DNA of 64,000 nt from assembly GCA_009823505.1 (NCBI GenBank), contig VZQC01009973.1, positions 145,809 through 209,808 of the forward strand. The letters are read 5' to 3'. The translations under genes and the position numbers were made by a program. Positions 5,110 to 39,560 of this stretch are shown in pieces. Numbering within the stretch: the first letter of the stretch is position 1; every line of letters starts with the position of its first letter. The notes under the pieces were generated by a model. That model was not told the origin of the DNA, did not search any database, and saw only the letters and a list, made by a program, of their open reading frames with translations. The DNA is from Rhizomys pruinosus (Eukaryota; Chordata; Mammalia; Rodentia; Spalacidae).

Positions 5110-5265
5110 CCAGTAAGGACCCTGGACACCAGGCTCGGGTGAACTTCTCCAGTAAGGACCCTGGACACCAGACTCGGGTTAACTTCCCCAGTAAGGACCC
5201 TGGACACCAGGCTCGGGTGAACTTTCCTAGTAAGGACCCTGGGCACCAGGCTCAGGTGGGGGTCC
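5110..5265 (+). repeat. 39-bp minisatellite, four units
   Basis: Four head-to-tail copies start at 5110, 5149, 5188 and 5227. Each begins with C(C/T)AGTAAGGACCCTGG and is 39 bases long. The first three are nearly identical and the fourth is diverged. Because 39 is a multiple of three, the array stays open as a repeat of 13 residues containing SKDPGHQARVNF. There is no splice or promoter evidence for a gene, so I treat the frame as a by-product. Confidence 0.9.
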
Positions 5266-21191: not shown

Positions 21192-21199
21192 TATAAATA
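21192..21199 (+). promoter_or_regulatory. TATA box of the signal-peptide gene
   Basis: TATAAATA lies 86-93 bases upstream of the ATG at 21285. Transcription would therefore be expected to start near 21220-21225, giving a 5' UTR of about 60 bases, typical of small secreted-protein genes. The call rests on the motif and spacing only. Confidence 0.6.
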
Positions 21200-21284
21200 A
21201 GGCCACTGTGAACTTGGGTTGTAACATCAGCTGAATATCAGACAAGATTTTCTTCCTGTCCACTGTCGGAACCCAGTGGGAAAC

Positions 21285-21345
21285 ATGAGAATCCACAGCT
21301 CTCAAATCCTGATGTCTTTATTACTCATTTCCTGGATCACCACAG
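21285..21345 (+). CDS. First coding exon of a small secreted protein (signal peptide), gene unknown
   Basis: The exon encodes MRIHSSQILMSLLLISWITT (20 residues) plus the first base of a glycine codon, and ends at an excellent donor (ACAG|GTAAGC). The product has a basic start, a hydrophobic core (ILMSLLLISW) and small polar residues near the expected cleavage point, so it reads as a cleavable signal peptide directing secretion. A TATA box sits upstream, and the phase-1 exon end is common in beta-defensin, chemokine and immunoglobulin-V leader exons. The matching acceptor is at 26929. I cannot identify the family: the MRIH start recalls some beta-defensins, and the SQ-LMSLL wording recalls kappa leaders, but neither is diagnostic. 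The gene is probably broken, because its second exon is cut by a provirus. Confidence 0.6.
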
Positions 21346-22045
21346 GTAAGCCTCAGCAACAGCTAAATACCTGAGAAGGGAGGAGATGCAGGAGCAAGGG
21401 GAAGTGGAGAAGAACTACTCCTAGGATTATAAGGGGGTGATGAGAGAATGGCATGGTTGAACTATGGAGATGCAGGGCTTTTCACAGGCAGATCTGGGGA
21501 TTACAGTGCCTGCAATTGCCCAAGCAAGTCAAGCACGTCTTGTGTGGTAGGAATTCTACTTAGGTGACATTAGACTACTACAATAATAGACCAGGTTCTT
21601 TTTCTAAGGGATATGTTAGCAATAACCCAACCAGCACATGCCAGTAAGATTCAGGGACACACCAAAGTGCAGGCAATATAGGGACCACAAGATAACTTTC
21701 AATGTGCTGGAACAACCAACTTACATTACTGAGATCTCCCTAATTATCATGAGGGGCAGCTCAAACTTATCAAATGATAGCAGAATTTCTGGGACAAGGT
21801 GGCCTGTCCTGGTGTGGGGAATGATGGGATCCTTCAGGAGGAAATGAGGATACTTTGTTCAGCTCAATTTTAAGGTAAATTTGAGTAGGTTTTGAATTAA
21901 TACACCTTATTTCCTTACCTGTATAGTAAGGTTGCTCGGGCAGAAAAAAAAATCAGAAAAAAATTGAAAAATAGTACTGTGTTTGTCTCAAGGATTTTTC
22001 TGGCTCCGCGATATTCCCAACAGACCCCCTGATCCATATCTTGGC
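21346..22045. other. Intron 1, unique part
   Basis: Bases 21346-22045 contain no recognised repeat and are presumed 5' intron sequence of the signal-peptide gene. No further exon with paired splice sites is apparent. Confidence 0.45.
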
Positions 22046-22143
22046 TGCCGGAGTCCAGCTCCAGCAGCTTCAGGCCCTGAAGTGGGTGGACTCAAACGCT
22101 GCAATGAAATTAATCAAATGAGACACAAGAATCTCTTTCTTTT

Positions 22144-22870
22144 TTAAAAAGTTACTTTTTTTAGCTATAAGTGATAATCCATTAGTATAAGCATCCTTCA
22201 TGTATAACCAATTTGCAGGCTGTTGTGCCCAAACACCCACAGCCCCACCTTCCAGCGGGGGGTGAGGGGTTGTATGTTCAATCAGGTTAATAAAAAAAAT
22301 GGAAAAAAAAAACTGAGAGAGATATGCAGGACAGTCATGGCAGAATGCATGATCTCGGTTGGGGTGGGGGTGGGGGTGAAGGGAAGGGGAGATATGCCTG
22401 AACTGAATTGGAAAATGATGTATGAAATGCACAAAGCATCAATAAAAAAAAATGTTGAGAGAGAAAAAAAAAAAAAAAGAATTTTAGACCAGCACAGTTC
22501 TCTTCACTGGTCTCTGTATTTTAAGAAAGGGAATAGCTTTAAATTTTTGTAAGTCCTCAGTAATGAGGATGTTATATGTCTCATTCTATATAAAGATTAT
22601 ATATAGATTCTAACAACTATCTGATGATGATAGAAATAAAGAATAGAGATAATAGAAGAAAAAAAAGTTACTTTTTTTATCTGTATGAGTATACTGTCTA
22701 CATGTATGTTGGTGCACTCATGTCGTGCAATGCCACGGAGGTCAGAAGAGGGCATCAGATTCCCCTGGAATTGGAGTTAAAGACAGTTCTTAGCCACCAT
22801 GTGGGAATCGAACCCTGGTCCTCTGCAAGAGCAGTCGGTGCTCTTAACCACTGAGCCATCTCTCCAGCCC
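22144..22870 (-). repeat. B2 SINE, reverse strand, split by an L1-tailed insertion
   Basis: Perfect 18-base target duplications (CAAGAATCTCTTTCTTTT) lie at 22126-22143 and 22871-22888. The B2 body is 22680-22870 on the minus strand (head CTCTCCAGCCCC at the right; CTCTGCAAGAGCAG and CATGTGGGAATCGAACCC are visible). Its poly-A tail region (poly-T on plus) is interrupted by the element at 22164-22661. The 17-bp internal duplication of the younger B2 subfamily is absent here. Confidence 0.92.
22164..22661 (+). mobile_element. L1-tailed insertion with 5' inversion and 3' transduction
   Basis: An 18-base duplication (AAAAAGTTACTTTTTTTA) flanks it at 22146-22163 and 22662-22679. Bases 22164-about 22300 are the reverse complement of the family body, while about 22305-22463 run forward through the G-rich stretch to TGTATGAAATGCACAAAGCA and AATAAA (22441). 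This head-to-head layout is the signature of twin priming. A first poly-A (about 22464-22478) is followed by about 180 bases of unrelated DNA (22479-22658), a second AATAAA (22635-22640) and a second poly-A. The extra DNA is therefore a 3' transduction carried from the source locus. Confidence 0.88.
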
Positions 22871-23649
22871 CAAGAATCTCTTTCTTTTCGTGACCTGAGG
22901 AGCATCTATCTTTCCTGTTCCTGTGCAGAGGACTTCTCCAGTTTGGCACTCTGCTGATTTTGTGACCTAAGGATTACAGAGAGCATCCATCTGCCTTCTC
23001 TGATCCTGTGCAGAGGGCCTTTCGGGGGTTTGCCACTCTGCAGATTTTTCTTCTCTGCCCTTTTTCTCTTCTCTTTTTTCTCTCTTTTCTCTCTCTTCTT
23101 TCTTTTGTCTCTGCTCCTCAGATCCTGATGTTTATTTTTATATATCCTAAGAGTAATATAGGTTATGCAAGCCCAAGCTAATGATGAAAAAAATAATCCA
23201 AATTCCCAGGAAATATTTTTCAGAAAATTCAGACCCGAAAACATTCTTAACATCATAAACAGTAAAACAATCAATACTGATAAAACCATTTAGTTGAGAC
23301 ATCACAGAAAGTAAAACAACAATAGTATAGCCCCTTGGCTAAGCAATTTAGTAGTTTTGCAGCAAAGTGAAGTCAATATTAACTTTTAACTCTGAGGACT
23401 TCATTTTTTATGCCTTGTGGTTACATAGATGCTAGACAGTGTAAAAAGTGAGGTTTGAAGATTTAACAATAGAGAACTTTATTTTTCTTGCCTTATTCCC
23501 TTGACCTGTAAGCTATTTCCTGGCTGATGTATTTGGAATCACTGTTTCACAGTGAATGAGTGTACAGTGATGAAACCTGTTATATTCTTGGTTGGTGGGA
23601 CACTTCAGAGCTTCTGTGTGTTTACACCAGGTCATAAATATGAAGATGT

Positions 23650-23811
23650 TGTGCTGGTTTAAATGAGAAGTGTCCCCCAAAGTCTAAATAATTTGAACAG
23701 TTGTTAACTCTGGAACATTTTGGGAAGGGCCATGGGAACTTTAGGAAGTGAGTGGTGCTGAATAAAGCATCTCACTGAGAGCGGGCTTTAACAATCGTTG
23801 TCTTATTCTGC

Positions 23812-23871
<60 letters not shown>

Positions 23872-23935
23872 TGCTTGTTGTTTGAGATGCAAGTCTTTAG
23901 ATTTTCACTCTTGCCACCCATGTCTGCTTGGCTAC
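23650..23935 (+). mobile_element. MT-type (ERVL-MaLR) LTR, plus strand
   Basis: It starts TGTGCTGGTTTAAATGAGAA and contains GGAACATTTTGGGAAGGGCC, AGCATCTCACTGAGAGCGGG and TGCTTCTCTCC before the CT array, the order of rodent MT LTRs. A (CT)n run of about 50 bases lies inside at about 23817-23867. Confidence 0.75.
23817..23867. repeat. (CT)n microsatellite
   Basis: An almost pure CT array of about 50 bases has expanded from a CT-rich part of the MT LTR that contains it. Confidence 0.95.
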
Positions 23936-24121
23936 CCAAAAATACTCAATAAAATACTCATTAACCAAATGCAAGAACTCAACAAATACTTATCCACAAA
24001 GATCTAGTAAGCTCAATCCCACCAAGGATGTAGGGATGATTTGACATATGTAAATTAATAAATGTTATCCAACAGATAACCAGACTAAAGGGAAGAGTTT
24101 TTAAGTGAAATACACAAAAGT
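23936..24121 (+). mobile_element. L1 ORF2 fragment, plus strand
   Basis: The segment follows L1 reverse-transcriptase text (CCACCAAGGATGTAGGGATG, TTGACATATGTAAATTAATA). It is truncated and frame-broken. The GTF3C6 retrocopy inserted at its right edge. Confidence 0.7.
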
Positions 24122-25186
24122 AGGATTCCTTTTTTTTTTTTTTTCTTTTTTGTCATATTTTTAAAAAATTTAATTCATGCCTGGTTTTGTATGATTCTGG
24201 AACAAGTTGTGCTATAACTGGGAATATGTGTAGGGTCAACAATAACAACAAACTGGTGAGCCACCTGAAAGCTACACAGGCAATTATTTTACATCAAACT
24301 TCTTTTCAAAAACTTTAGGAGTGGTTAATATGAGAAATGTTTCCATCTTGAGTTTTCATGAAAACAGAGCTTCCTATTTCTGATGAAGAGGCATCCACAG
24401 GAGGTCCAGGATGCGCTGTTTCTGAGTGCAGAACTTTCCCTTGGCCAAACAGCTCTGCACTGTCTGTCATTTGAGTCTCTTCCAACTCCAAAGGTTTATC
24501 AGAGGCTGAAGCTGCAGCATCGTCTTCATTTTCATGTAGAAAGCTACAAATCATGTTGGGTCTGTAGGAGAAGTCATTATCCTTCATCTGCAGCCACTCA
24601 ACTCCATCTATGTTTTCTTCTCCTTCCTTCTTTTCTGTCAGAAGAGTTCTTGTCATGCTGAGCTTCTTCATTGTGTGGCATTTGTATTTCAGCATTGTTT
24701 TATCAATTCCTTCTGGATCCACATGTTCAACACTTTCTTCGAATATAACACAGGTCCCAAGAGTATCTTCATATTCCCCAGCAAAGACATAGCTGTCCAC
24801 TTTCAGAATAGGCCTTTCAGTGTCAATTCCCAAAATCTTGCATTTATTTTCACATTTGGAGAGAAAGTCTGAATCAATAATTCCTGACAATTCCACCAAC
24901 ACGAACTGTTCAGCCTCATCTTCCTCTTCTTCCTCCTCTTCCTCTTCGTCCTCCCAATTCGTCTCCATTGCCGCCGCCATGGCCCGTGTTCTCGGAGACT
25001 CCATCACTGGCCACGCCCACACGGAACCGCCATCTTGGAAAGGGGAAGCTGTGTCCTTCCCGTACCTTGTTGCGGGATGCAGGCTTGTACACCCTGGTGG
25101 GGCGTCAACTAAGGTTACAATGGGGAGAGGGAGGCAGGTAGGCCATTCTAAGACAGCAAAAATCAACCTCAGGATTCCTTTTTTTT
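24122..25186 (-). pseudogene. GTF3C6 processed retrocopy (full-length mRNA insertion)
   Basis: The copy is bounded by a 16-base target duplication, AGGATTCCTTTTTTTT, at 24122-24137 and 25171-25186. The right-hand site has the T-rich/AA context cut by the L1 endonuclease. A poly-T run (about 24130-24151) is the poly-A tail on the minus strand, with an ATTAAA-type signal about 20 bases away (TTTAAT near 24168-24173). The copy has no introns and includes a 5' UTR of about 190 bases and a 3' UTR of about 165 bases, so a whole mRNA was reverse-transcribed by L1 machinery. It lies inside intron 1 of the signal-peptide gene, in the opposite orientation. No promoter of its own is evident. Confidence 0.92.
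24315..24980 (-). CDS. Intact GTF3C6-like reading frame (TFIIIC subunit 6) in a retrocopy
   Basis: The frame encodes 221 residues, close to the 213 of human GTF3C6, the small TFIIIC subunit that helps assemble RNA polymerase III transcription complexes. It starts MAAAMETNWEDEEEEE. I chose the ATG at 24980 because it sits in the acidic N-terminus in a good context (GGCCATGG), although the frame is open 62 codons upstream. The conserved core includes QFVLVELSGIIDSDFLSKCE (about residues 24-43), CKILGIDTERPILKVDSYVF and AGEYEDTLGTCVIFEE. Later come KYKCHTMKKLSMTRTLLTEK and NDFSYRPNMICSFLHENED. There are no stops or frameshifts. It is either a recent neutral retrocopy or a retained retrogene. The sequence alone does not show expression. 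Confidence 0.85.
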   Translation of the reverse strand: MAAAMETNWEDEEEEEEEEEDEAEQFVLVELSGIIDSDFLSKCENKCKILGIDTERPILKVDSYVFAGEYEDTLGTCVIFEESVEHVDPEGIDKTMLKYKCHTMKKLSMTRTLLTEKKEGEENIDGVEWLQMKDNDFSYRPNMICSFLHENEDDAAASASDKPLELEETQMTDSAELFGQGKVLHSETAHPGPPVDASSSEIGSSVFMKTQDGNISHINHS

Positions 25187-25268
25187 AAACAATACTCTAT
25201 TCAGCAAAGAAGGAAAACAACCTCTTGATAGAGATTTTTGAAGAGGAAGTATGAATTTAATGAAAATC

Positions 25269-25292
25269 ATATATATATATATATATATATAT
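25269..25292. repeat. (AT)n microsatellite
   Basis: An AT dinucleotide array of about 24 bases lies in otherwise unassigned AT-rich intronic DNA (25187-25722). Confidence 0.95.
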
Positions 25293-25722
25293 ATCCCACA
25301 GGATGAGAATATCCTCTGATGCTGGTTTACTCTGGCCATTATAACCAATACCTGACACAAGGAAAAATGAACAGAAGATACTTCTTACCACTCAGCTTTG
25401 AAGGGTGGATGTCTGAGATGAAAGGTTGGCAGAGATGGCTCTTCCTGCACGTTTTGTACCTTACTTGAGATGATTTCCATCTATTTTTCTTTATTTACCT
25501 TTGCTCTGAATTATTTTCATAACTTCTTATATGATGACCAGCCATACAACTGCATGTGAACTCATTTATCACTTTAAAGACCATATCTACTAATAGAAAA
25601 ACAAAAGCATTCCTACAAAGAGTGAGTTTAACACTAACTACAATGTAAGAATTATCTAAATTTCCAGGAAGCAGTCCAGCATCCTATGTAAAGGAGGATT
25701 GCAAAATGACTGCTTGATGGTC

Positions 25723-26089
25723 TGTATTAGTCACTTTTCTGTTGCTGTGATTAACCACCATGAGCAATAGAATTTATAAAAGGAAGAGTTTATTTGAGCT
25801 TACATTGACGATTCCAGGGAATCAGAGTCCATTATGGCCGGAGGTGTGGCAGCTGGAGAGGCATGGCAGCTGGAGCAGCAAGCCAAGGGTCACATCTCAC
25901 AATGAGCACAGGAAGTCAAGAGAGAGCGAATGGAGCCCGCAAGGCTTGTTAAACTCACTAAGCCTGCCCCCAATAACGTACTTCCTCTAGCATGGCCACA
26001 CCTTCTAAGACCTCCAAGAACAGTGCCACCAACTGGAGACAAATGTCTGAATACTTAAAGCCTATGGGGGACACTCATTCAAACCACCA
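25723..26089 (-). mobile_element. MT-type (ERVL-MaLR) LTR, reverse strand
   Basis: On the minus strand it begins TGGTGGTTTGAATGAGTGTC and continues CCCATAGGCTTTAAGTATTC, CCAGTTGGTGGCACTGTTCT and GGTGTGGCCATGCTAGAGGA. It ends …GACTAATACA. This is the standard rodent MT LTR order at the usual length of about 370 bp, with no internal region. Confidence 0.85.
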
Positions 26090-26607
26090 CCTGGTCTTTT
26101 TCCAGGAATGGCACAAAATACCAAAATACGCTCTCCACTGGGGTTCTTAGAAGAATATTCTAGAGTGCTTTCCAATGGGACTCTGAATTAGAGCAAAAAG
26201 CAGAATGAACACTAACTTTATATCAATGGTGTTTTCACATATGAATTCTTGTTTCACATCCATAGGAAAGGATCCAAGGTTTCAGTAGAAGTGTAGGTTG
26301 GGAGCATAATTAGCTGGGACTCAGGTTAGAGAGTAGTCTAACTAAAATCAGGTAAAAGGAAGCTCAAGTTGGAATCACTGCATAAATCCCACTGTATTTC
26401 TCTGGAATAGAGGAGAGCCATTTGGGGACTCATAAAATCAGCTTGAGACTCATTTGCGAATAACTTCAGGTCCTTGAACAAAAAAAAGTCTCTCAGCAGA
26501 AGCACAAAGAGCCCTGTTGTTTTGCTTGGCCAGGAAGTGCATCACAGGTCTGATTCTATTAGCATTCTCCGAAGTTCCTATGTGCATTGTAAAGTCTGTC
26601 TCTTTGA

Positions 26608-26830
26608 CTGGAGAGATGGTTCAGCAGTTAAGAACACTGGCTGCTTTATAGAAGGTCTGTATCAGGTTCCCAGCACCCAAATGGCAGCTATGAAATGTCT
26701 GTAACTCCAGTTCCCATGGATCTGATGACCTCTTCTGATTTCCCTGGGCATTATGCCATATGGGTGCACTCGTGCACATGCAAGTAATACACTCATACAC
26801 ATAACTAAAATAAAAACAATAAATAAAATA
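26608..26830 (+). repeat. B2 SINE, plus strand
   Basis: It begins GACTGGAGAGATGGTTCAGC and holds CAGGTTCCCAGCACCCAAAT. It ends in ATAAAATAAAAACAATAAAT. It is more diverged than the copies at 3970 or 31752 and lacks their 17-bp duplication. Confidence 0.88.
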
Positions 26831-26928
26831 GTGTTTTTCCAAAAACCTGTCTCTTTAAATTTCCTGAATATCCTAAAGCAGCTGTAAACACAGAAAAATT
26901 CTGAAATATTTCTCTTCCCTCTTTGCAG

Positions 26929-26957
26929 GTTCTGCCCAGCATCTCAGTGTGGGAAAA
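26929..26957 (+). pseudogene. Second exon of the signal-peptide gene, truncated by a provirus
   Basis: A strong acceptor (TTTCTCTTCCCTCTTTGCAG) ends at 26928. The 29 bases that follow restore the frame of exon 1: the split glycine codon is completed, then codons for SAQHLSVGK follow. The next base is the TG that opens the proviral LTR at 26958. The last six host bases, GGAAAA, are the expected target duplication. A transcript splicing 21345 to 26929 would read six codons of LTR and stop. The rest of the original exon is not found downstream, because the other side of the provirus has been lost. The link to exon 1 is inferred from splice phase and orientation. Confidence 0.5.
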
Positions 26958-27636
26958 TGCCATGGCAGCTTCAGTTGAATCTGAGTGACATGATCACCAG
27001 AGTGAGGCAGAAGCTTCAAGGAAGTTTGCCTCCCGAAACAGCTTGTGCCTTCAGCCTTTTTCTTGGAATAGGCTGTACCTTGTTAATCATTACTGTTCTC
27101 TGTGCTATCATTGTTTGGGGATATGGATCAATGCGTTACCTTGTTCCTAGCAAGATACATGGTCTGGATACTGACCTAGATAATGAAACCACACCATTTC
27201 CTCCTTTAGTCATTGATTTGCCTGAAATTATGCAAGTACTTATGATCAGACATAAGAGGGCCACTAACTAGATAAGTAAGTCAAATTATTAAACTCTTCA
27301 TGAACCTTGGTCAAATGGCAACCACTCTCTATCACTTGGTAAACTTAAAAATGCATAACTTCCTGAAAACTAATGATCTAGAAACTAATGTTCTTTCAGT
27401 TTCCTATTAAAATATTAACTGCTCTATTCTTAGTAAACGTGCAATGTAATCAAATAAACCACATAGCTTCTGCATAAAACTAGTGTATAAAACCACTGAG
27501 ACTTTGAAAGTAAAGTTGCACTTAGATCAAGCCTGTTTGTGTCTGTGTGTCATTCCCTTTACCAGATCCCTTGTCCACCTTCTCTTCTCCCTGTTCCCGT
27601 CAGACTGATCGCTCCTGACTCAGTTGGTCCATTGCA
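26958..27636 (+). repeat. 5' LTR of the betaretrovirus-like provirus
   Basis: The LTR is 679 bp, starts TGCCATGGCAGC and ends ATTGCA two bases before the primer binding site. U3 carries an open frame of about 104 codons (26957-27271) encoding a membrane-anchor-like segment with FSLFLGIGC and a Val/Ile-rich stretch, which is the C-terminal part of env TM in another frame. TATA is at 27486-27492 and an AGTAAA polyadenylation-type signal at 27509-27514. A CT-rich U5 follows. Confidence 0.9.
27486..27514 (+). promoter_or_regulatory. Proviral TATA box and polyadenylation-type signal
   Basis: TATAAAA at 27486-27492 would set the U3/R boundary near 27515. AGTAAA at 27509-27514 is the nearest polyadenylation-type hexamer. 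A canonical AATAAA at 27453-27458 lies upstream of TATA and is less likely to be used. The LTR could act as an alternative promoter or terminator for the surrounding gene. Confidence 0.5.
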
Positions 27637-27638
27637 GG

Positions 27639-27656
27639 TGATGCCAGAAGAGGGAC
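27639..27656 (+). other. Primer binding site, tRNA-Lys type
   Basis: TGATGCCAGAAGAGGGAC lies two bases after the LTR and agrees at 14 of 18 positions with the sequence complementary to the 3' end of tRNA-Lys, the primer used by betaretroviruses. Candidate env splice donors follow at 27666/27667 (AGAG|GTAAAC) and 27817/27818 (AAAAG|GTAAGG). Confidence 0.75.
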
Positions 27657-27795: not shown

Positions 27796-29884
27796 ATGGG
27801 GCATTAACAATCAAAAGGTAAGGAGCTTTTTGTGTCAGTCCTGCATCACATGTTAATGGGTCGAGGACTTAAAGTCCCAAAAAGAAATTTATCTGATTTA
27901 TATGATTTCGTGTTAAAAATCAGCCCCTGGTTCCCTGAGCAAGGAAGCTTATCTTTGGAAAATTGGAAAAAGTTAGGAAAAGAAATGCATAAATATTATG
28001 AGAAACAGGGTCCTGGAAAAGTTCCTAACCAAGCATTCTCTCTTTGGATACAGATTAGAGATATGCTAACAGATAAATCAGAATTGGAGCTATTCACAGA
28101 GGAGGCACCCTCTGTCAAGGATGAGGAAGTCCCTTTGACAATAGTGAAAAGAAAGGGATATGATTCCACATGTCCAAAGAATATCAGCAAACATCCCCCA
28201 GCTAATTTGTTAAAACCTGAGCCTGGGGATGATTGGCTAGAAGATGATGACGAATGGGTTTTAGAAGAAGAAGCTGCTAGATATCATGAGGGAGATGAGG
28301 ATAGGGATCATTTTCATGACGAGGATCCCCCAACAGATTTATTGGCACTTGCCACTATGCCTCCACCCTGGAAAAGGATAGCCCCTAGAAGAGGAAGGCC
28401 TTCTAATAAGTTACCAGCCAATATGGGATTTATAGGTGCAGTAAAGGAGGCAAGAAGAGTAGGAGATACTAGACTTTGTGTCCCTTTGACAATTTTTGAT
28501 GATGGGCCTCCTCAATTGGAGACTTTACCTTTAAAAACACTAAAAGAACTTCAAACTGCTTGTAAAACTATGGGCCCTTCTTCGCCCTATGCTTTGCAAA
28601 TAGTAGATATGGTAGGGAGTATGTGGTTGACACCTTATGATTGGCAGCAAACTGCAAAATCAGTGCTGAGCCCTGGTCAACACATATATGGAGAACTGAA
28701 TATGAAGATACTACTAGAAAAGCTGTTCAAAAATCTTTTCTTAAGAAAGGCGCTAAACCTACAATGTGTATGCTATTAGGATGAGGGGAATATGCTACTC
28801 CCCAGTCTCAAGCTCACTTACCCAAGGAAGTATTGGAAGAAATAGCCAAAATAGCTGTAGGCGCTTGGAAAAAGTTACCCCCTCCTGAGGACAAGTCCAC
28901 AGAGTTATCAGATACAGAAACAGGAAGAAGCATATGAGGATTTTGTGGCTAGGCTGGAGGAGGCCATAGGAAGGATGCTTCCTCCCTCAGAGGGATCAGA
29001 ACTGTTGTTAAAACAATTGGCTTGGCTAGGGAACAACCTGCGGAAGAGGGGGCGTGGTAGAATGTAAGGGCTGCGATTGGGGTGAATGGTGAAACTACAG
29101 CAATGTAGTCTGGACACTCATTTGATCAACTTGATTGAACAAACAACCTGTCACCCCCCACTGGATGGTGGGGCTGTAGGTGTTTGGGCACAACAGCCTG
29201 CAGATAGGTTTTGCATGAAGGAAGCTTGTACTCATGGATTATCACTTATAGCTAAAAATGAAAAAAAAAAAAATGAGAGAAAGATGCAGGACAGTTATGG
29301 CAGAATTCATGATCTGGGGATGGGAGTGGGGGGTGGGGGGGAAGGGAAAAGGGAAAATAAGCTCTGAACTGAATTGGAAGAATGTTATGAAAATGCACAA
29401 AGCATCAAGAATAACCTAATGTAAAAAAAAAAAAAAAAAAAAAACAATTGGCTTGGGAAAATGCTAATACGTTGTGTCAAAAATTGATTCGGCCAGTAAG
29501 AAAAACTGGGACGTTGCAGGACTACATAAAAGCTTGTTTGGATGTCTCACCAGCAGTGGTGCAAGGAGTAGCCTATGCTGCAGCTATGAATGGTCAGCAC
29601 TACAGAGCCTTTGTGTCTAAATTAATGGTGAATCAAGCAGAAGGCAATGCTTCTCTTGTGGTCAAGAAGGACACATGAGTAAAAATTGTCCAACCAAGGA
29701 CAAACAGTCCCCTTTCAATACAAATGAGAGAAAGAAATCAACCCCAGGACTCTTCCCCAGATGTAAAAAGGGCAGACACTGGAGAAATGAATGTAAATCT
29801 AAATATCATAAGGATGGAACCCCTCTTTCGGATGACAAAGAGGAGACAAAAAACGGCAGGAGGGGCAAGCCCTCAGCCCTATAA
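27796..29884 (+). pseudogene. Proviral gag, broken
   Basis: Gag encodes the virion structural polyprotein. The natural start is probably ATG-GGG at 27796, giving the Met-Gly needed for myristoylation, but codon 4 is TAA. From 27832 the frame runs to 28779 with matrix-like text (KISPWFPEQGSLSLENWKK) and capsid-like text (PLKTLKELQTACKTMGPSSP, GSMWLTPYDWQQTA). A frameshift near 28690 ends it, and another stop follows at about 28783. An L1-tailed element interrupts capsid at 29026-29440. Capsid resumes at 29448 with the major-homology region ([19 protein letters not shown]), and nucleocapsid spans about 29640-29884. The first zinc knuckle (C-S-C-G…H…C) is readable across a frame change; the second has Phe in place of its first Cys. 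No functional Gag is possible. Confidence 0.9.
29026..29440 (+). mobile_element. L1-tailed repeat inserted in proviral gag
   Basis: A 16-base target duplication, AAAACAATTGGCTTGG, lies at 29010-29025 and 29441-29456. The insert starts CTAGGGAACAACCTGCGG and contains the shared body (GGGGCTGTAGGTGTTTGGGC, CTTGTACTCATGGATTATCA). A G-rich block (about 29318-29345) is followed by an A-tail of more than 20 bases. It is a 5'-truncated member of the family at 8136, 14706, 22164 and 34623, and it post-dates the provirus. Confidence 0.93.
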
Positions 29885-29946
29885 ATAAAGGAGGGAACTT
29901 AAAAATAGAAAAGCTTAATCCTGAAGTAGTAGAGTTTTGCCCACAA

Positions 29947-30687
29947 ATGGGTCAGACTGTTTTTAACCTACCAAGGGCAACACCAGGTAGTGCAGGATTG
30001 GATTTGTCAGCTATAAAAGACTATATTTTATCCATGGTTGATGGAGTCCAGCTGGTGGATACCATGGTACATAGACCATTACCAGAAGGGACTTTTGGTC
30101 TCATAATAGGTATAAGTTCAAACTACAAGAAATACTTGGAAGTTCTTCCTGGAGTGATTGATGCAGATTATCAGAGAGAAATTAAGATAATGATTAGACC
30201 ATTAAAGAAAACAATTCAGATTCATAAGAATCAGTGCTTAGCTCAGTTATTGTTAATACCTTATATCAAGACTCCCAATCTGGTATTAAAACAAGAAAGA
30301 GGAAGTCAAGGGTTTGGAAGCACAGAAGCAACTAATTGGGTACAGGAAATAAATCGACGAAGACCTATTAAAACTATATATTTAAATGGTAAGCCTATAC
30401 AAGGAATATTGGATACTGGTGCAGATAAAACATGTATCGCTGCCAAAGATTGGCCTTCTAATTGGCCTACACAGAGGGCTTGGTCGACATTGGTAGGCTT
30501 GGGATCTACCTCCAATGTACTTCAAAGCTCTCAATATTTAAATTGGACATGTAATAACAAGAGTGGAAAAATTCAGCCAAATACTGTTGCTTCATTACCA
30601 TTCTCCTTATGGGGAAGAGATATAGTGCATGATATGGATGTGCATTTGATAACTTCTGATGATTTTAGCCTAGAGCATTTTTCATAG
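29947..30687 (+). CDS. Proviral dUTPase-protease frame, open
   Basis: This frame is intact over 246 codons. Residues 1-115 are dUTPase-like: PGSAGLDLS near residue 13 is the conserved dUTPase motif, and [14 protein letters not shown] (near 70) and GFGSTE (near 121) are further conserved spots. The enzyme lowers dUTP during reverse transcription. The protease part follows, with the aspartic active site ILDTGADKT at about residues 153-161, then WGRDI near residue 222. In this class the product is made by ribosomal frameshifting from gag, so the first ATG need not be the true start. It is the only uninterrupted proviral gene here, but with gag and pol broken it has no evident viral function. Confidence 0.88.
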
Positions 30688-30689
30688 GG

Positions 30690-33626
30690 GCCACTGAGGA
30701 ATATTATGCAGATAAAATTATATGGAAAAATGAAGAGCCTGTGTGGGTTAATCGGTGGCCCCTAACTCAAGAAAAGATACAGGCTATAGAAAAATTGGTT
30801 CAGGAACAACTTGATAAAGTATATTTAGAAGCTTCAAATAGTCCTTGGAATACACTAATATTCACTATTAAAAAGAAATCAGGAAAATGGAGACTCTTAC
30901 AGGATTTAAGAGCAGTAAATGCTACTATGGAAACCATGGGAGCATTGCAGCAAGATCTTCCTTCCCCGGTAGTCATTCCCAAAGAAATGGTCACAGTTGT
31001 TATAGACCTGCAAGACTGCTTTTTTACTATAAAACTACATCCAGAGGACTGTAAAAAATTTGCATTTAGCATACCATCAGAAATTTCCAAAGGCCTTTTC
31101 AGCGATATCATTGGAAAGTATTACCTCAAGGTATGAAAAATAGTCCTACTTTATGTCAAAAATATGTAGACCAAGAATTAATAAAGGTTAGAGAGTGGTG
31201 TCCTGGTGCATATATCATTCATTATATGGATGACATACTCCTGGCTACTCCAAGCTTGAAGGAGACTCAGGAAGCATTGGAGAAAATGATACAATTAACA
31301 TCTTTTGGACTAATCATTGCACCTGATAAGATTCAGTGGAATAAACCATTGTCCTATTTAGAGAATATGATTTATGATTATTACATACAATCACAAAAAA
31401 TATCTATCAGATATGACAAACTAAAAACTTTAAATGATTTCCAAAAACTATTAGGAAATATTAACTGGATTAGGCCATCATTAAAAATTACTACTGGAGA
31501 ACTGCATCCCCTATTTAATATTTTAAAAGGAGATAGTCATCTTAATATTTTAAAAGGAGATATTCATCAAAATTCATCAAGACAAATAACAAAAGAGGCA
31601 ATTGAGGCTTTAGCTCTTGTAGATAAAAAATTATCTGAAGCAAAAGTTCATCAAATAGACTATAATAAGGAATGGATGTTAGTTATTCTAAAACTCAATT
31701 CACTCCCCCTGGATGTTTTTGGCAGGGAGGAGTATTAGAATGGATACACCTGGGGCTGGAGAGATAGCCTAGCGGTTAAGAGCACCGACTGCTCTTGCAG
31801 ATGACCTGGGTTCGATCCCCAGCACCCACATGGCAGCTAAGAACAGTCTGTAACTCCAATTCCAGGAGAACTCCAGTTGCAGGGGAATCCAAGACCCTCT
31901 TCTGACTTCCGCAGCATTGCACAGCACGGGTGCACAAACCTACATGCAGACAGTACATTCATACACATACAAAAACAAATAAAATTTTAAAAAAAATTTA
32001 AAAAAGAATGGATACACCTATTACATATGCAAAGTAAAATGGTATCGTCTTATGTGTACCTTACGGCTCAACTTATAATCAAAGCTAGACAGAGATCTAA
32101 AGAATTATTTGGTAAAGAAATGCAAAGTATTATTATTCCATTAAATAAAACTCAATTTGAACATTTAATGCAAACTGATGATGAATGGCTTATAGCACTG
32201 CAAAATTACACAGGACAAATTAAGTATAATTTGCCTCAACATAAAATCTTAAAATTTATTCACGAAGTTGTTATAATTTTTCCAAACAAATGCTCTTTAA
32301 CACCTCTGGAGGAAGCTCTTACTGTCTTTACAGATGGCTCCTCTGATGGAACCTCTGTGGTATATGTGTCAGGCAGGCCACCCATTATCAAAAGGTCACC
32401 TGGTATTTCTGCACAGCAGGCAGAAATTACTGCGGTAATTATGGCCTTTGAGACATATCCCCAACCTTTAAACTTCTACACACATTCTAAGTATGTGGTT
32501 AATTTATTTCCGGCTATTGAAACAGCCCTATTGTCAGGTCAGTCCCCTGTATTACCATTACTGTTAAAGTTACAAAAAGCTCTTGTCAATAGACAAAGCA
32601 AGGTCTACATAGGCCATATAAGAGGACATACTGGACTTCCAGGGCCCTTATCAAAAGGCAATTATATGTCTGATCTATATACTAAAACTCTAATAGCCAC
32701 AGCTTTAGAAGAGGCTATAGAGAGCTGTCATCTTCATCATCAGAATGCACTTGCTTTGAAGAAAATGTTTAACATCACTAGAGAATAGGCTAGACAAATA
32801 GTAAAGCAGTGTATGTGCTGTCCAGATATATACCATCCCTTAAAATTAGGAGCTAATCCTAGAGGGCTGAAGCCTCAAGTGTTATGGCAGATGGATAACA
32901 CACATATTGCAGAATTTGGAAGATTAGCTTTTGTACATATAACCATTGACACTTACTCTCATGCAATGCATGCTACAGCCAGAACACGGGAAGCTGTTAA
33001 AGATGTCATCCAGCATTTAATATACTGTTTTGTCAACTTAGGACTGCCATCGCAGATAAAGACAGATACTGCTCCAGCATATTCATCAAAAGCCTTTAAA
33101 ACCTTTTGCGATCAATGGCACATCAAACATACTACAGGAATACCTTATAACCCCCAAGGTCAGGCAATAATTTAAAGAGCTCATCAAACTTTAAAGACAC
33201 AGCTATTACGTCAAAAGAACACTAATAAATATTTTCCCCTCATCAAGCTTTGAATCATGCACTTTTTACCATAAATCAATAATTACCCCAATGAAAAGGC
33301 ACTGGGGAGATCAAGAACACAAAATTGAACCAATGGTTACACGGAAGGATTTATTAACAGGCATGTGGAAGGGCCCAGATGTCTTAATTTCCTTGGGAAG
33401 AGGATAGGCTTGTGTGTTTCCACAGGATGCGGACTCTCCCATCTGGATCCTGGACCGACTTATCCAGCACTACAATGTCAAGGAAGCAGAAAAGAAAGCA
33501 GCAAAACCTAAGGCAGGCCTGTCTGAAAATGAAAGCACTGCTGCTGACTCCGAAGGCGTCACAGCAGACACCAAAGGCCAAGACACCGACATGGGGACAA
33601 GTCAAGAAGCTGACGAAGGAAGCTGA
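30690..33626 (+). pseudogene. Proviral pol (reverse transcriptase, RNase H, integrase), broken
   Basis: Reverse transcriptase begins at about 30741 ([36 protein letters not shown]). A frame change falls near 31110-31136, and the catalytic YMDD box follows at about 31224-31235 (HYMDDILLATPS). A further frameshift and stop (31738) precede a B2 insertion. RNase H lies at about 32310-32700: FTDGSS and the AEIT glutamate are present, but the YxDS aspartate reads His (YTHSKYVV). Integrase spans about 32740-33200: a stop at 32786 sits in the zinc-binding region, and WQMDNTH and KTDTAPAY keep the first two catalytic aspartates. The codon expected to hold the catalytic glutamate after NPQGQAII is TAA (33173-33175). 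The tail runs to 33626, overlapping the start of env. The enzyme set is dead. Confidence 0.9.
31752..32004 (+). repeat. B2 SINE inserted in proviral pol
   Basis: A perfect 15-base target duplication, AGAATGGATACACCT, lies at 31737-31751 and 32005-32019. The element has the head GGGGCTGGAGAGATAGCC, the B box GGTTCGATCCCC, the 17-bp internal duplication and an A-rich tail. It is clearly young relative to the provirus. Confidence 0.96.
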
Positions 33627-34622
33627 GTCCATAGTGACTCAAACTGAAAAGCCTTTGACTGCAGCTAGTTTTTTCTTGGCCAATCTTGCAGTCTTATCTA
33701 CTCAGCTATCCACTGTATCATGTGCAGTGTATTGGGCATATGTTCCATCTCTGCCTCTGATTCACCTTGTGGGCTGGGGGGGAAGAAATGCAAATTAAAG
33801 TAATGACTAATAAGAGTGATTTACTGGGGGGATTTGCAGATTTAAGAAATCATCATGATATTTCCTCTGAATTTGCATATGAGGACAGATCTGACACAGC
33901 TCCTATTTGTGTCTCTCTTGGAACTACTGTACCTTTTGGATGCCTTCCCCTTAGTTATAGAACCTTTTTGACTGATGCACCTGATAAATTTAAGAATTAT
34001 GGAGGAAAGAACAAAATTAGCAATAAAAGATTAATTTGGGAAATAGGTCTTATGACCTTGGGTTATTCTAATTATAATGATACTTACGTTCCTTGGAATG
34101 ACAGTTTACCTATTGACTTGTGTATTCAAAAATACCATAATAAAGATCAATTTTGGGATTCACTTATAAAGTATCCACAATGGCTTCTTTGTGGATTCAT
34201 AGGAAAAGTATTAAAATACTGTCCTTTTGATTCTACAGAGAAAATTTTTGTCTTTTCCATAAGCGGCCCTGACTATGACTATACCTCTAATTTAAAAAGT
34301 AACTCCCAGCACTTTAATGGATATCAAACTAATACTTTGGGAGAACCAATAAAACGGTGGTTCATGCCCAGATGGGTGGCACCTGTATATGTGAGTCACT
34401 CGCATATACACAATCTTACTACCATTCACCCAGAGCTTTTTCACTTGTTTGCCACAGCCAACATAGTATTGCTTAAAGAACCAAGAAAAAATAATTCTGA
34501 TCCGCTTGCAGTGAGAAGCTGTGTGGGATATCCATACGGAATTTTAGCTGCTGATCCTAGAAATCTTATTATTGCTAATGTTGGAAAGTCATATCATATT
34601 CAATGTTCAAAATGTATTCTTT

Positions 34623-35110
34623 TTTTAATTTATTTTTATTGATGCTTTGTGTATTTCATACATCATTTTCCAATTCAGTTCAGGCATATATCCCCTTCCC
34701 TTCCCCCCCACCCCACCCCTACCCATCGCAGATCGTACATTCTGCCGTAAGTTTTCTGCATCTTTCTCTGCTTTTTTGTTTTGTTTTGTTTTCATTTTTT
34801 TTAACAATAGATGATAATTTGTGAGTACAAGCATCCTTCATGTAAAACCAATTTGCAAGCAGTTGTGCCCAAACCCACACAGCTCATGGGTCCCACCATC
34901 CTGAAAGGGGGGGCTTGTATGTTCAATCAAATTGATCAAATGAGTGTCCAGTCTATATTGTTGTAGTTTCACCATTAACCCCAATCGAAGCCCTTACATT
35001 CTACCACGCCCCCTCTTCCACAGATTGTTCCCTAGGCTTAGAAAAGGGGCACAGGTGGATGAGAAGCAAAACACTCTACTTTCTCTGGAGCTGATGTCTT
35101 GGTCTCTAGT
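34623..35110 (-). mobile_element. L1-tailed repeat inserted in proviral env, reverse strand
   Basis: A target duplication of 14 bases, CAAAATGTATTCTT, lies at about 34608-34622 and 35111-35124. The left end is poly-T, then TATTGATGCTTTGTGTATTT, a C-rich block (34700-34725) and the shared body (GTGCCCAAACCCACACAGCT, CTTACATTCTACCACGCCCC). It is truncated at a point different from the copies at 14706 and 29026. Confidence 0.92.
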
Positions 35111-35713
35111 CAAAATGTATTCTTACAGATTGTATATTTTCAGGTTTTAATAAGAGTTATTCAGTTATTATTCTTGTTAAAAGACCTTCTTATGTCATGA
35201 TTCCTGTCAATCTTGGAGATGATCCTTGGTTCGATAATTCTGCTTTACAAACTCTAAAAAATTTAAATGAACTAGTTAGGCCTAAAAGATTCATTGCCGC
35301 TTTGATTCTAGGAATTACAGCATTAATAGCTATCTTGACATCTTTTGCTTTCTCTACTGCTGCCTTGGTTACTAATGTTCAAACTGCACATTTTGTAAAT
35401 GATTTGAGTAAAAATGTTTCTGCTGCATTTGCTAATCAGCATGATATAGACAAAAGACTAGAAGCAAAAGTAAATGCGCTTGAGGAAGCCGTTTTGGCTC
35501 TCGGAAAGGAAATTCAAAATTTAAAGGTACAGCTCTCAACTCGTTGCCGCGCTAGCTTTAGATATATTTGTGTGACACCGCTAAGGTATAATGATACCTG
35601 GGAATGGAATACTACTAAGAATCACTTATTGGGAATATGGAAGGATAATGATATTACTCGCAATATGTTAGATCTCCAGCAACAAATTATGGATAATAGT
35701 AAGGCTCACATAC

Positions 35714-35727
35714 AAGAAAGGGAGAGA
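35714..35727 (+). other. Polypurine tract of the provirus
   Basis: AAGAAAGGGAGAGA ends directly before the TG of the 3' LTR. It would prime plus-strand DNA synthesis and fixes the LTR start at 35728. It lies within env coding sequence. Confidence 0.85.
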
Positions 35728-35940
35728 TGCCATGGCAGCTTCAGTTGAATCTGAGTGACATGATCACCAGAGTGAGGCAGAAGCTTCAAGGAAGTTTGCC
35801 TCCTGAAACAGCTTGCGCCTTCAGCCTTTTTCTTGGAATAGGCTGTTCCTCATTAATCATTACTGTTCTCTGTGCTATGATTGTTTGGGGATATGGATCA
35901 ATGCGTTACCTTGTTCCTAGCAGGATACATGGTCCAGATC
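35728..35940 (+). repeat. 3' LTR of the provirus, truncated
   Basis: It matches the first 213 bases of the 5' LTR with roughly eight or nine substitutions by eye. It keeps the membrane-anchor-like frame open until the break. At about 35937-35941 (around GATC) the match to the LTR stops and reverse-strand ERVL protease sequence begins, so the last 466 bases of the LTR and the right-hand target duplication are missing. Confidence 0.9.
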
Positions 35941-36456
35941 ACTAATTTCTGCAATCCCTCCAGGGATACGATACTGTTTTTGGTTCACTATTTTTCCTGG
36001 TAGAGGCAGCACCAATGGTTTCCATTTGGCCTTTCCGACCATAATAGCCCTCACTCCACAGGTCAGGGAACCAATGTGGGGATTCCGCCAATTTCTAATT
36101 TATATCTATCCCAATTATACATTCTGGGACTGGGGAAATAACCACAAGATGAGTTCTGGGACCCACTGGGCCCACTGTGAGTCAGACTTCAGCCAAAACT
36201 CCATTTATCACCTGACCTCCATAGGCCCTTACTTTACCTTGAGGGTCACAATGCTTTTTAGGGTCTCCTGGATCAGTGTCAACTCAGAACCAGTATCCAA
36301 TAGGCCTCAAAAAGTCTGATTATTTCCTTTTCCCCAGTGTACAGTTACCCTAGTAAAAGACCTCAGGTCCCTCTGGGAAAGGACAGGAGGAAGGCAAACA
36401 GCATAACTCTTTGGTATTGTGACAAGGTCCTTCCTCATTGGAACCCGGCCACCCCT
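35941..36456 (-). pseudogene. ERVL protease / start of pol, broken
   Basis: On the minus strand, text near 36300-36270 encodes a TGSELTLI-type aspartic protease site. At about 36020-35960 the frame reads toward a QYRIPGGIAEIS-like segment that precedes reverse transcriptase in ERVL elements. Stops and frameshifts interrupt it, and it ends at the junction with the betaretroviral LTR. Confidence 0.65.
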
Positions 36457-38143
36457 TCATTCAAGGGGTTCTGGGTCTGTGAACTGTCTCAAGTCTGGAA
36501 ACTGGTTAACTGGGCGGGATTTGCTACTCCTAAAATCAAATGTTGACTTCCTGTCATTTGTTCTAGAGCTTTTCTGCTTATACAGATCAAATAAAAACTT
36601 AGTAGGCTTCTTGTGTATTTGGTTCCTGGGAACGCCATGATTGATTAGCCAGTTCCAAAGATCATTTTGGGTCATGCCATTATAGGTATTGTTTTGCCTT
36701 TGCCACCCATTATGATAATTATGGTAACTACGCTCATCTGGCCTTCTGCAATTCAGTGCTGCCACCTGACGCCTACCCTGAGGTCCTGTTAAACCTATTA
36801 TGTGTACATTTAATTTATGCAAGCGAGCAACAACTTCTCTAACTGTAAGATCTGGCATAAGAAATAGAGCAAAAACAAAGCTCTTCAAATGTTCTGGTGT
36901 CTCTCTCAGTACTTTCCATCTTATAAATTCAGTGAGTGGCATGTCCTCTGGGTCCTCATATTGTGGAGAATGTGGTTTTACACTTCGAATCCACTCGAGC
37001 ATGCCCATCTGCCTGACCCTCACAATCCCTTCATCAATACTAAGCCAAGGAATATCAGGCATCTCTAACTCGCTGTTAGTAGGCCATGTTTTAATAAATA
37101 CATCAGCCAACCATTCAAATAAACTTTTAACACCTTTTTTAACTGCTCGAGCTTCCATGTTAAACCTAGAATCTCTACTCAGTGGGCTCATATCGATAAA
37201 CTCAGTATGATCCAATTTTATATTCCTTCCACCATTATCCCACACCCTTAAAATCCATTCCCACACATATTCCTTAGGCTTCTGCCGGAATGAATCAGCA
37301 AACTCATTAATTTCTTTAGTGGTATAACGCACCTCCTCTTGGACCACACTTTCTATCTCACCTTGAGGGGCTTGCTTAGACTTCAATCTGGTTATAGGTC
37401 TAGAGGCAACAATTGTTGGGCCCTGAGGGACATTAACTCCCACTGGGAGGGGGGGATTAGTTTCCTCAGGCAAGGGTGGGGAGGAGGGATCTGCAGGGTG
37501 TGGATTCTCTGCTGAGGGTGGGGAGATTAATTCCTCAGATAAAGAAAATCCCTCAGAATCTGAAGGTTCAAAATCCTCATCATCATGGTTCTCCTACACA
37601 TCTCCATCCCAAGTTTCAGGGTTCCACACTTTCCCCACCAGTGCTCTCACTTTAACTGCTGACACTCTTCATGGCTGGGAATTAAATTTGCATTGTAAAT
37701 CAGCCAAACGTATAATAAGGGCTGCAGCTTGATTTTCTGCTGCTTTAGCTTTTTGGCTGCTGGAGAGAAGATTCTCTTCCAGAGCACACTTGGAAACCTT
37801 TAAACTGTTGTTTCGAATCCAGAGCTGGTCATTTTTATCACTGAGCTCCTTACTTTCCCCTATCACTTTATCCAGACATGCTAGGAGCAACAAGGCAACA
37901 TCATTATTTTCCTTATTTTTCTGCAATTTCTCGAACGTTTTATATAGAGTCGCTAAAATCCTTGCTTCTCACAAGAGGTGAGTTAGGTGAGTCAAATAGA
38001 TCTATCTTCATAATTAGTTCAAATAGTCTGCACCAAGGATTATCATTCCTCTTCATGCCACCAGGAGAGCTTTCAGTAACTCTAGGCTTCATTGGGTTGG
38101 AGAGCTGGCTCCAGAGGCTACCAAGCCCACTAAAGAAATTCAT
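36457..38143 (-). pseudogene. ERVL gag, partly open
   Basis: On the minus strand gag starts near 38143 (MNFFSGLGSLWSQLSNP). A frameshift follows within about 70 codons, a second piece is 37926-37669, and the main block is 37473-36457, open for about 338 codons. That block contains YTTKEINEFADSFRQKPKEY, WILRVWDNGG and LPDIPWLSI-like capsid wording. This is the gag type from which the mouse restriction factor Fv1 was derived. Its last codons (after about 36540) run toward the protease region. In-frame stops lie between 37669 and 37473, so a complete Gag is not encoded. Whether the open block is under selection is unknown. Confidence 0.8.
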
Positions 38144-38163
38144 CCTTTCAATTCTGTTTCTCT

Positions 38164-38181
38164 AGAACCACTCCCGGTACC
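38164..38181 (-). other. Primer binding site of the ERVL element (tRNA-Leu type)
   Basis: The minus strand reads TGGTACCGGGAGTGGTTC six bases after the end of the LTR, close to the leucine-tRNA primer site that gives ERVL its name. Confidence 0.7.
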
Positions 38182-38187
38182 AAAATC

Positions 38188-38665
38188 TGTATTAGTCAGG
38201 GTTCTCTAAAGAAACAGAAGTAACAGGACGAATATATATAGCTATATATAATTTATTGATTTGCTCAGGTGACAGAGTTCAAGGATTCCAACAGTAGCTG
38301 CACCACACTGGAATGGCCAAGACGAGAATCCAGGGAACTGCTCAGTCCGCAAGGCTGGATGTCTTAGTAGCCCCAATCCAGTGCTGAAGGCCCAAATGGA
38401 TTCCAGGAGATCTGCCTGTCTCAGTACACGCTGGGATCCGAAAGGTTAATCACAGCAGCAGACAAACTCACAAGATGAGAGAAGCAAGCCGCAGGAGAAA
38501 AGGGACCAGCTCGTTCTGCCATGGCCTTTTATACTGCCTGCCGGCAGAAGATAACACCCACATTTGGGGTGGGCCATCCGGGTTGAGGTGGTCCAATCCA
38601 AACATCCCTTTTCTCTTATTTGTTCCTTAGTCCAGTAAAGTTGACACACAGTATTAACCATCACA
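38188..38665 (-). repeat. 5' LTR of the ERVL element
   Basis: The LTR is 478 bp. On the minus strand it starts TGTGATGGTTAATACTGTGT and ends CTGACTAATACA. A TATA-like GTATAAAA lies at about 38527-38534. AT-rich sequence and the CTTTAGAGAACCC wording near the end fit MT2/MLT2-type LTRs. It interrupts an L1. Confidence 0.88.
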
Positions 38666-39560
38666 CACACTAAGGTCTTGTGTATCCTTGTGGGTGAGAT
38701 GAGTTTCTTGACAATCAAAAGATAGGGTCTCTTTTTTCATCCATTCTGCTAGTCTCTGATTTGACAGGGGGTTTTAGGCAATTGGCTTTTAATGATATTA
38801 CTGAAAGCTGTGTATTAGGTACTATTATTTTAATTGCTTTATGGATAAAGGTAAACCCTCATTCACTGCTAGTGTGAATGCAAACTAATGCAGCAACTAT
38901 GGAAGACAGTGTCTGAAACGTTCAATAAACTACAAATAAACCCACCATATAACCCAGTTACATCACTCATTTGCATATACCCAAAGGAATCATCACACTG
39001 TAAAAACACTTGTACATCCATGATTGGTGCTGCTTTCTTCAAATAACTAAGAAATGGATGGAGCCTAAATGTTCGAAAATGGACTTGCGGATAATGAAAA
39101 AAGTGGTACATCTACCGATGGAGTAATACTCAACAATAAGAAATGAAGCTATTATGCAAATCACAGGTAAATAGATTGGACTATTGAGTGCATACCAAGA
39201 GAAGTATTGCAGAAACCAAGAGATGCATGTTGTCTCTCATTTGTGTTCTTGTCTATCACTAGGGAAGGATACTTGGAGGTAAAGGAAAAGAAGGAACCAA
39301 ACAGAGGGGGTAGTATGTCTTTAGGGGAATAGAAATGGTGGCTATGTTGGTTTGGAGGGGAGGAGGGAGAAAAATGCAGGGAGTTGAAGGGGAAAGTGGG
39401 GAAGATGGTGGTGCTAAGGAAGGGTAAGGAGGAGGGATTTGGGAAGTGAAGAAGAAAGAATAGAGATGATTGGACCTTGAGATTCTAGGGAAAACAGTGT
39501 GGAGTGTGATGCACCTGAAACCCCATGAAAAATGCACATAAACTGTCTGAAACTTAGTAG
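38666..39560. mobile_element. L1 with inverted 5' segment, then ORF2 end and 3' UTR
   Basis: Bases 38666-38849 are L1 ORF2 in reverse orientation (TTTGATTGTCAAGAAACTCA on the minus strand). Bases 38850-39290 are L1 ORF2 C-terminal text in forward orientation (AACCCTCATTCACTGCTAGT, CACCATATAACCCAGTTACA). A purine-rich 3' UTR follows to about 39560. The head-to-head join near 38850 fits a twin-priming inversion, and the ERVL LTR abuts the inverted part. Confidence 0.7.

What the first reader, a model, noticed from the sequence alone, without database searches (positions are those of the whole stretch)
21192..26957. A signal-peptide gene whose second exon is cut by a provirus 29 bases after the splice acceptor
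Seen: TATA box, ATG, hydrophobic 20-residue leader, strong donor at 21345, then 5.6 kb later a strong acceptor at 26928 in the same orientation and matching phase, with nine further codons before the LTR begins at 26958. The last six host bases (GGAAAA) are the expected betaretroviral target duplication. Inference: an actively transcribed secreted-protein gene was disrupted, and the spliced product would end after six LTR codons. The family is unknown.
Basis: partly seen in the sequence, partly recalled or inferred. Interest (0 to 1): 0.75.

Follow-up and report, generated by a model that had tools for sequence, protein, structure and literature searches.

The report
Beta-defensin gene copy cut by provirus
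In what looks like a rodent genome, one copy of a small family of genes, probably for beta-defensin antimicrobial peptides, keeps its promoter and first exon but has its second exon cut short by an endogenous retrovirus: a clear but fairly ordinary case of gene loss.

Summary
TATA box, 61-base exon 1 (leader MRIHSSQILMSLLLISWITT), phase-1 donor, 5.6-kb intron, acceptor and 29 bases of exon 2 end exactly where a 679-base betaretrovirus-type LTR starts. The same genome holds four more promoter/exon-1 copies; two keep an exon 2 behind the same acceptor. Those second exons show beta-defensin-like cysteine spacing, and Pfam Defensin_beta is their only match, below the curated cut-off; both are broken. 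So the 'unknown family' is probably beta-defensin; a second, local profile test gave mixed results. 'Actively transcribed' has no support. The GGAAAA target duplication cannot be checked: the 3' LTR breaks off after about 210 bases and is joined to the inside of a high-copy repeat, probably another retroelement, and no rest of exon 2 was found in the window or the next 200 kb. Of ten other LTR copies read, seven show clean 6-base duplications. This is a new example of a known kind. Whether the provirus killed a working gene or hit a dead one cannot be told.

The parts
21192..21199 (+). TATA box (TATAAATA)
   Evidence: Read directly; kept in the 4 paralogs, one lacking one base
21285..21345 (+). 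Exon 1 coding part: leader MRIHSSQILMSLLLISWITT plus first base of a Gly codon; donor GT at 21346
   Evidence: four paralogous exon-1 copies
21346..26928 (+). Intron, 5.6 kb, colinear in blocks with the introns of the paralogs at C2480:358-365 kb and C2818:8-10 kb
26929..26957 (+). Surviving first 29 bases of exon 2 (nine full codons, SAQHLSVGK)
   Evidence: acceptor and first bases aligned with two paralogs
26952..26957 (+). GGAAAA, candidate 6-base target duplication; partner not found
   Evidence: 7 of 10 other LTR copies read have clean 6-base duplications; no partner found
26958..27636 (+). 5' LTR of the provirus (TGCC...TTGCA, 679 bases)
27639..27656 (+). Diverged primer-binding site, tRNA-Lys type by eye
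   Evidence: By eye against a recalled consensus; the exact-match scan found none
27832..35748 (+). Provirus interior, searched in nine pieces: gag p10/p24, dUTPase-protease, reverse transcriptase (split over two open frames), RNase H, integrase, a sub-cut-off Rec match, GP41-type env; one piece without match
35728..35939 (+). Truncated 3' LTR (first ~210 bases), preceded by a purine tract (by eye)
35940..38666 (-). High-copy repeat, probably a retroelement, joined inside its interior; minus strand by its 378-codon open frame (Pfam DUF5535); outer LTR-like end about 38188-38666 by eye
   Evidence: (1323 first-look candidates; 39 other scored hits at 97-98%); far end by eye

Best explanation
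A member of a small gene family, probably beta-defensins (exon 1 = leader, exon 2 = mature six-cysteine peptide), was hit by a betaretrovirus-type endogenous retrovirus that integrated in sense orientation 29 bases into exon 2, before any cysteine codon. A transcript from the host promoter that still splices would encode a 36-residue peptide (leader, nine exon-2 residues, six LTR codons) without a defensin core. Later a deletion joined the 3' LTR, about 210 bases in, to the interior of a downstream high-copy element in the other orientation, and so removed the rest of exon 2. Shown: gene structure, paralogs, LTR start, truncated 3' LTR, unique junction. Inferred: beta-defensin identity of this copy (through its paralogs), the deletion and the order of events, absence of a functional product.
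For: Paralogs of promoter/exon 1; exon 2 behind the same acceptor in two paralogs and colinear intron blocks. Exon 2 of the C2818 paralog has C-x6-C-x4-C and, after a frame change, C-x5-CC; the C2480:365 kb paralog has C-x6-C-x6-C-x9-C with an in-frame stop right after the first cysteine. Pfam PF00711 Defensin_beta is the only match for both (E 0.0011 and 0.0033; 0.0032 for the C2480 copy in one unshifted frame with the stop as X), against 0 of 8 shuffles. The LTR has many copies: 40 scored of 316 first-look candidates, the window's own among the 40; in 7 of 10 of them read, clean 6-base duplications flank TG...CA ends. Interior pieces match gag, dUTPase-protease, RT, RNase H, integrase and GP41-type env. 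The 3' junction is unique among the hits listed: 39 of 40 match only the part right of the join.
Against: Both Pfam scores lie below the gathering cut-off (19.4 and 17.8 against 21 bits), and the reading of the C2818 copy needed a frame change that I chose; without it, its first part alone gives no match and its unshifted reading gives none. A narrow profile made from the nine Defensin_beta hits of this genome supports the C2480 copy only moderately (9 of 2000 shuffles as high) and does not support the C2818 copy (1771 of 2000; 331 of 2000 without composition correction). Genome searches list no place on C2480 or C2818 for PF00711 (E up to 0.001, 150 of 284 candidates scored) or PF13841 (E up to 1). 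The second gap of the C2480 copy, x6, is outside the published x3-5. The window copy itself has no cysteine before the break.
Confidence: 0.78

Rival explanations
1. The gene copy was already a pseudogene (broken in the part of exon 2 that is now missing) and the provirus landed in dead sequence. This is compatible with the anatomy above but denies that a working gene was disrupted.
For: Both paralogs that keep an exon 2 are broken, and two exon-1 copies have no exon 2 detected. Exon 1 of the window differs from the C2480:358 kb copy at 12.7 of 46.3 non-synonymous and 5.3 of 13.7 synonymous sites, a weak contrast.
Against: TATA box, start codon, open leader, donor, acceptor and the nine remaining full codons of exon 2 are all kept. 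Against the nearest paralog (C2480:228 kb) exon 1 differs more at synonymous (0.48) than non-synonymous sites (0.15), but over only 20 codons.
Confidence: 0.45
2. The family is another small secreted protein with a phase-1 leader exon, not a beta-defensin.
For: Pfam scores below the curated cut-off; local profile test mixed; no family hit on these two contigs in the genome searches.
Against: PF00711 is the only Pfam match for both paralogous second exons, 0 of 8 shuffles match; cysteine spacing of the C2818 copy fits the published formula C-X4-8-C-X3-5-C-X9-13-C-X4-7-CC (passage of PMC515299) if its frame change is allowed.
Confidence: 0.17
3. The exon pair is a chance arrangement in non-genic DNA.
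For: Only the lack of expression data.
Against: Promoter, exon, intron blocks and acceptor shared with paralogs.
Confidence: 0.01

Closest known systems
Mammalian beta-defensin genes (mostly two exons; duplicated clusters with pseudogenes, e.g. mouse chromosome 8)
   Same: Exon 1 = leader, exon 2 = mature six-cysteine peptide; TATA boxes in defensin genes; pseudogenes by duplication and decay (passages of PMC515299 and PMC2807441)
   Different: This copy loses exon 2 to a provirus; no copy of this family was shown to be intact here; subfamily not assigned
Endogenous betaretroviruses (class II, MMTV/HERV-K type; class assignment from recalled domain make-up)
   Same: Gag p10, dUTPase-protease and GP41-type env matches; 6-base duplications in 7 of 10 copies read
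   Different: 679-base LTR; a 104-codon open frame at its start has no Pfam match to a superantigen family
Gene inactivation by endogenous retroviruses (recalled kind)
   Same: Sense-orientation provirus inside an exon truncates the product
   Different: Here a junction with a second element has also removed the 3' side

Membership tests
Beta-defensin | Two coding exons, leader then mature peptide | tested here: met
   Leader exon, phase-1 intron, exon 2 in two paralogs; no transcript evidence
Beta-defensin | Six cysteines C-X4-8-C-X3-5-C-X9-13-C-X4-7-CC | tested here: inconclusive
   Spacing seen in one broken paralog across a frame change; four cysteines with x6 in the second gap in another; the window copy ends before any cysteine
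Beta-defensin | Pfam PF00711 above gathering score | tested here: not met
   19.4 and 17.8 bits against 21, sole match; broken copies read with X. For this reason the copy is called probable, not filed as a proven member
Betaretrovirus-type ERV | LTR pair with TG...CA ends | tested here: met
   26958-27636, and the truncated start 35728-35939
Betaretrovirus-type ERV | dUTPase with protease, gag p10, env | tested here: met
Betaretrovirus-type ERV | 6-base target duplication | tested here: inconclusive
   Family: 7 of 10 copies clean; this copy: 3' side missing
MMTV superantigen (LTR open frame) | Pfam superantigen domain | tested here: not met
   Sole listing is Vpu at E 0.098, below its cut-off

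The most novel reading that the evidence does not exclude
The intact host promoter, leader exon and splice sites still feed into the LTR, so the locus makes a short secreted host-virus fusion peptide, or a transcript that begins at a defensin promoter and runs into the provirus, under innate-immunity control.
Probability: 0.07. Interest if true: 0.45.

Novelty: new member of a known kind. Interest (0 to 1): 0.27.

Why it matters
It is one well-resolved example of how an immune-peptide family shrinks: duplication, point decay in some copies, and retroviral truncation followed by loss of the 3' half in another. It also shows that the target duplication cannot be read at this locus. It does not change what is known in general.

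Tried and rejected
Exon peptides against Pfam and solved structures: no match. Unshifted paralog peptides against Pfam: no match. Protein search with the C2818 paralog: no candidate. Six-cysteine pattern scan: no beta-defensin-type match in the window or in the 200 kb downstream and L007. Search for the rest of exon 2 with the paralogs' second exons: nothing in the window or in C2480 up to 409,808 apart from the paralog's own exon at 365 kb and short weak matches, best E 0.018; a fast-changing exon could be missed. Genome-wide pattern 'LTR end + GGAAAA': two places, as many as in the backward-pattern control; by eye neither is followed by exon-2-like sequence. A first local profile held three sequences read on the wrong strand and is discarded; the repeat is the one reported. 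The genome search with the window's own intron/exon-2 end did not complete, nor one with an exon-1 paralog; the local comparison and the search with the C2818 exon 2 (two places) stand in for them. Upstream C2480 and more of C2818 were not obtained, so paralogs below the reach of the DNA searches are not excluded there. Literature: three searches on defensin with retroviral insertion or pseudogenization listed 3, 2 and 1 papers, none by title or abstract start about such a locus; only open-access papers are held. Likeness of the second element to the mys/mysTR family of cricetid rodents is recalled and untested; PMC10089650 was seen in passages, PMC2807441 and PMC515299 likewise.
Full report
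What is there. The window is G000:C2480:145809-209808 of an unnamed 3.67-Gb genome. A TATA box at 21192, an ATG at 21285, a 61-base first coding exon with a hydrophobic leader and a GTAAG donor at 21346 are present as described. A pyrimidine-rich acceptor ends at 26928, and 29 bases of exon 2 follow in phase, up to the TGCC start of an LTR at 26958. The predicted spliced frame gives nine full exon-2 codons, six LTR codons and a stop.

Is it a gene? The genome search with exon 1 gave four places, the window and three paralogs, and a local search added a second, inverted copy on C2818, so five copies in all. Identities to the window over about 320 bases are 73-80%. The TATA box (one base short in one copy), the ATG and the donor are kept. 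The 5.6-kb intron is colinear in blocks with that of the C2480:358-365 kb paralog, and the last intron bases, the acceptor and the first bases of exon 2 match two paralogs (E 1.4e-11 and 2.1e-9). Chance is not a serious option.

Which family? In the C2818 paralog exon 2 reads C-x6-C-x4-C and, after a frame change, C-x5-CC. In the C2480:365 kb paralog it reads C-stop-x5-C-x6-C-x9-C. The published beta-defensin formula is C-X4-8-C-X3-5-C-X9-13-C-X4-7-CC (passage of PMC515299), so the second gap of the C2480 copy is one residue too long; most mammalian beta-defensin genes have two exons, with the leader in the first (passage). Pfam Defensin_beta is the only match for both (E 0.0011 and 0.0033, both below the curated cut-off). 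The C2480 copy matches also in one unshifted frame with its stop as X (E 0.0032); the unshifted first part of the C2818 copy alone gives no match; 0 of 8 shuffles match. Against this, a narrow profile made from the nine PF00711 hits of this genome supports the C2480 copy only moderately (9 of 2000 shuffles as high) and fails for the C2818 copy (1771 of 2000; 331 without composition correction). The genome searches list nine places for PF00711 (E up to 0.001, 150 of 284 candidates scored) and nineteen for PF13841 (E up to 1), none on C2480 or C2818. I take beta-defensin as likely (about 0.83), through the paralogs, not from the window copy itself.

The provirus. The LTR spans 26958-27636. The LTR search scored 40 of 316 candidates, the window's own among them; the others are 91-95% identical and most cover query positions 1 to 672-683. 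Of ten copies whose ends I read, seven have clean 6-base duplications, one matches at 5 of 6 bases, one at 5 bases only, and one is the 3' LTR of a provirus, preceded by its purine tract (the sorting is mine, by eye). Nine interior pieces were searched: eight match gag p10/p24, dUTPase-protease, reverse transcriptase (two pieces), RNase H, integrase, Rec (below cut-off) or GP41-type env, and one has no match. Over 208 bases the two LTR starts differ at 8 sites, the last at the edge of the homology (K2P 0.040), that is about 3 to 9 million years at assumed rates of 7e-9 to 2.2e-9 per site and year; the stretch is short and the estimate rough.

The other side. The 3' LTR stops after about 210 bases at 35939. 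From 35940 the sequence belongs to a repeat with 1323 first-look candidates in the genome; the 39 other hits scored all begin at query position 81 and are 97-98% identical. In five of these copies the sequence left of that point differs from the window and is alike among them, so the join lies inside that element. It is probably a retroelement on the minus strand: it has a 378-codon minus-strand open frame with a Pfam DUF5535 match and an LTR-like end seen by eye. The simplest history is insertion of both elements and then a deletion between them that took the rest of the LTR, the 3' copy of GGAAAA and the rest of exon 2; this is inferred. With the paralogs' second exons as queries, no rest of exon 2 was found in the window or in C2480 up to 409,808, apart from the paralog's own exon and short weak matches (best E 0.018). 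The genome-wide pattern for this LTR end plus GGAAAA has two matches, as many as its control, and neither leads into exon-2-like sequence by eye.

How it works, or fails. Without the cysteine core the copy cannot make a defensin. Whether it worked before the insertion is open: its leader, splice sites and nine remaining exon-2 codons are intact, but both paralogs that keep an exon 2 are broken. A small fusion peptide is possible and untested.

Verdict. It is a new example of a known kind. No paper on this locus appeared in the listings of the three searches made for it.

Noticed in passing
26957-27271 (+): A 104-codon open frame begins at the LTR border (its A from the flank, TG from the LTR), with a hydrophobic stretch. 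It sits where MMTV keeps its superantigen frame (recalled), but has no Pfam superantigen match.
   Followed up: partly
L007:2512-2826 (+) and L007:9494-9808 (-): Two convergent exon-1 copies of the same family, 97% alike, on C2818; an exon 2 was found only for the minus one.
   Followed up: partly
L010:7953-8270 (C2480:227761-228078): Exon-1 copy closest to the window (80%); no exon 2 of its own was found before the next paralog's exon at 365 kb or up to 409,808.
   Followed up: partly
38188-38666: LTR-like end (TGTATTAGTC...) of the high-copy element, seen by eye; likeness to the mys/mysTR elements of cricetid rodents is recalled, not tested.
   Followed up: no
5110-5258: Tandem array of 3.8 copies of a 39-base unit.
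   Followed up: no
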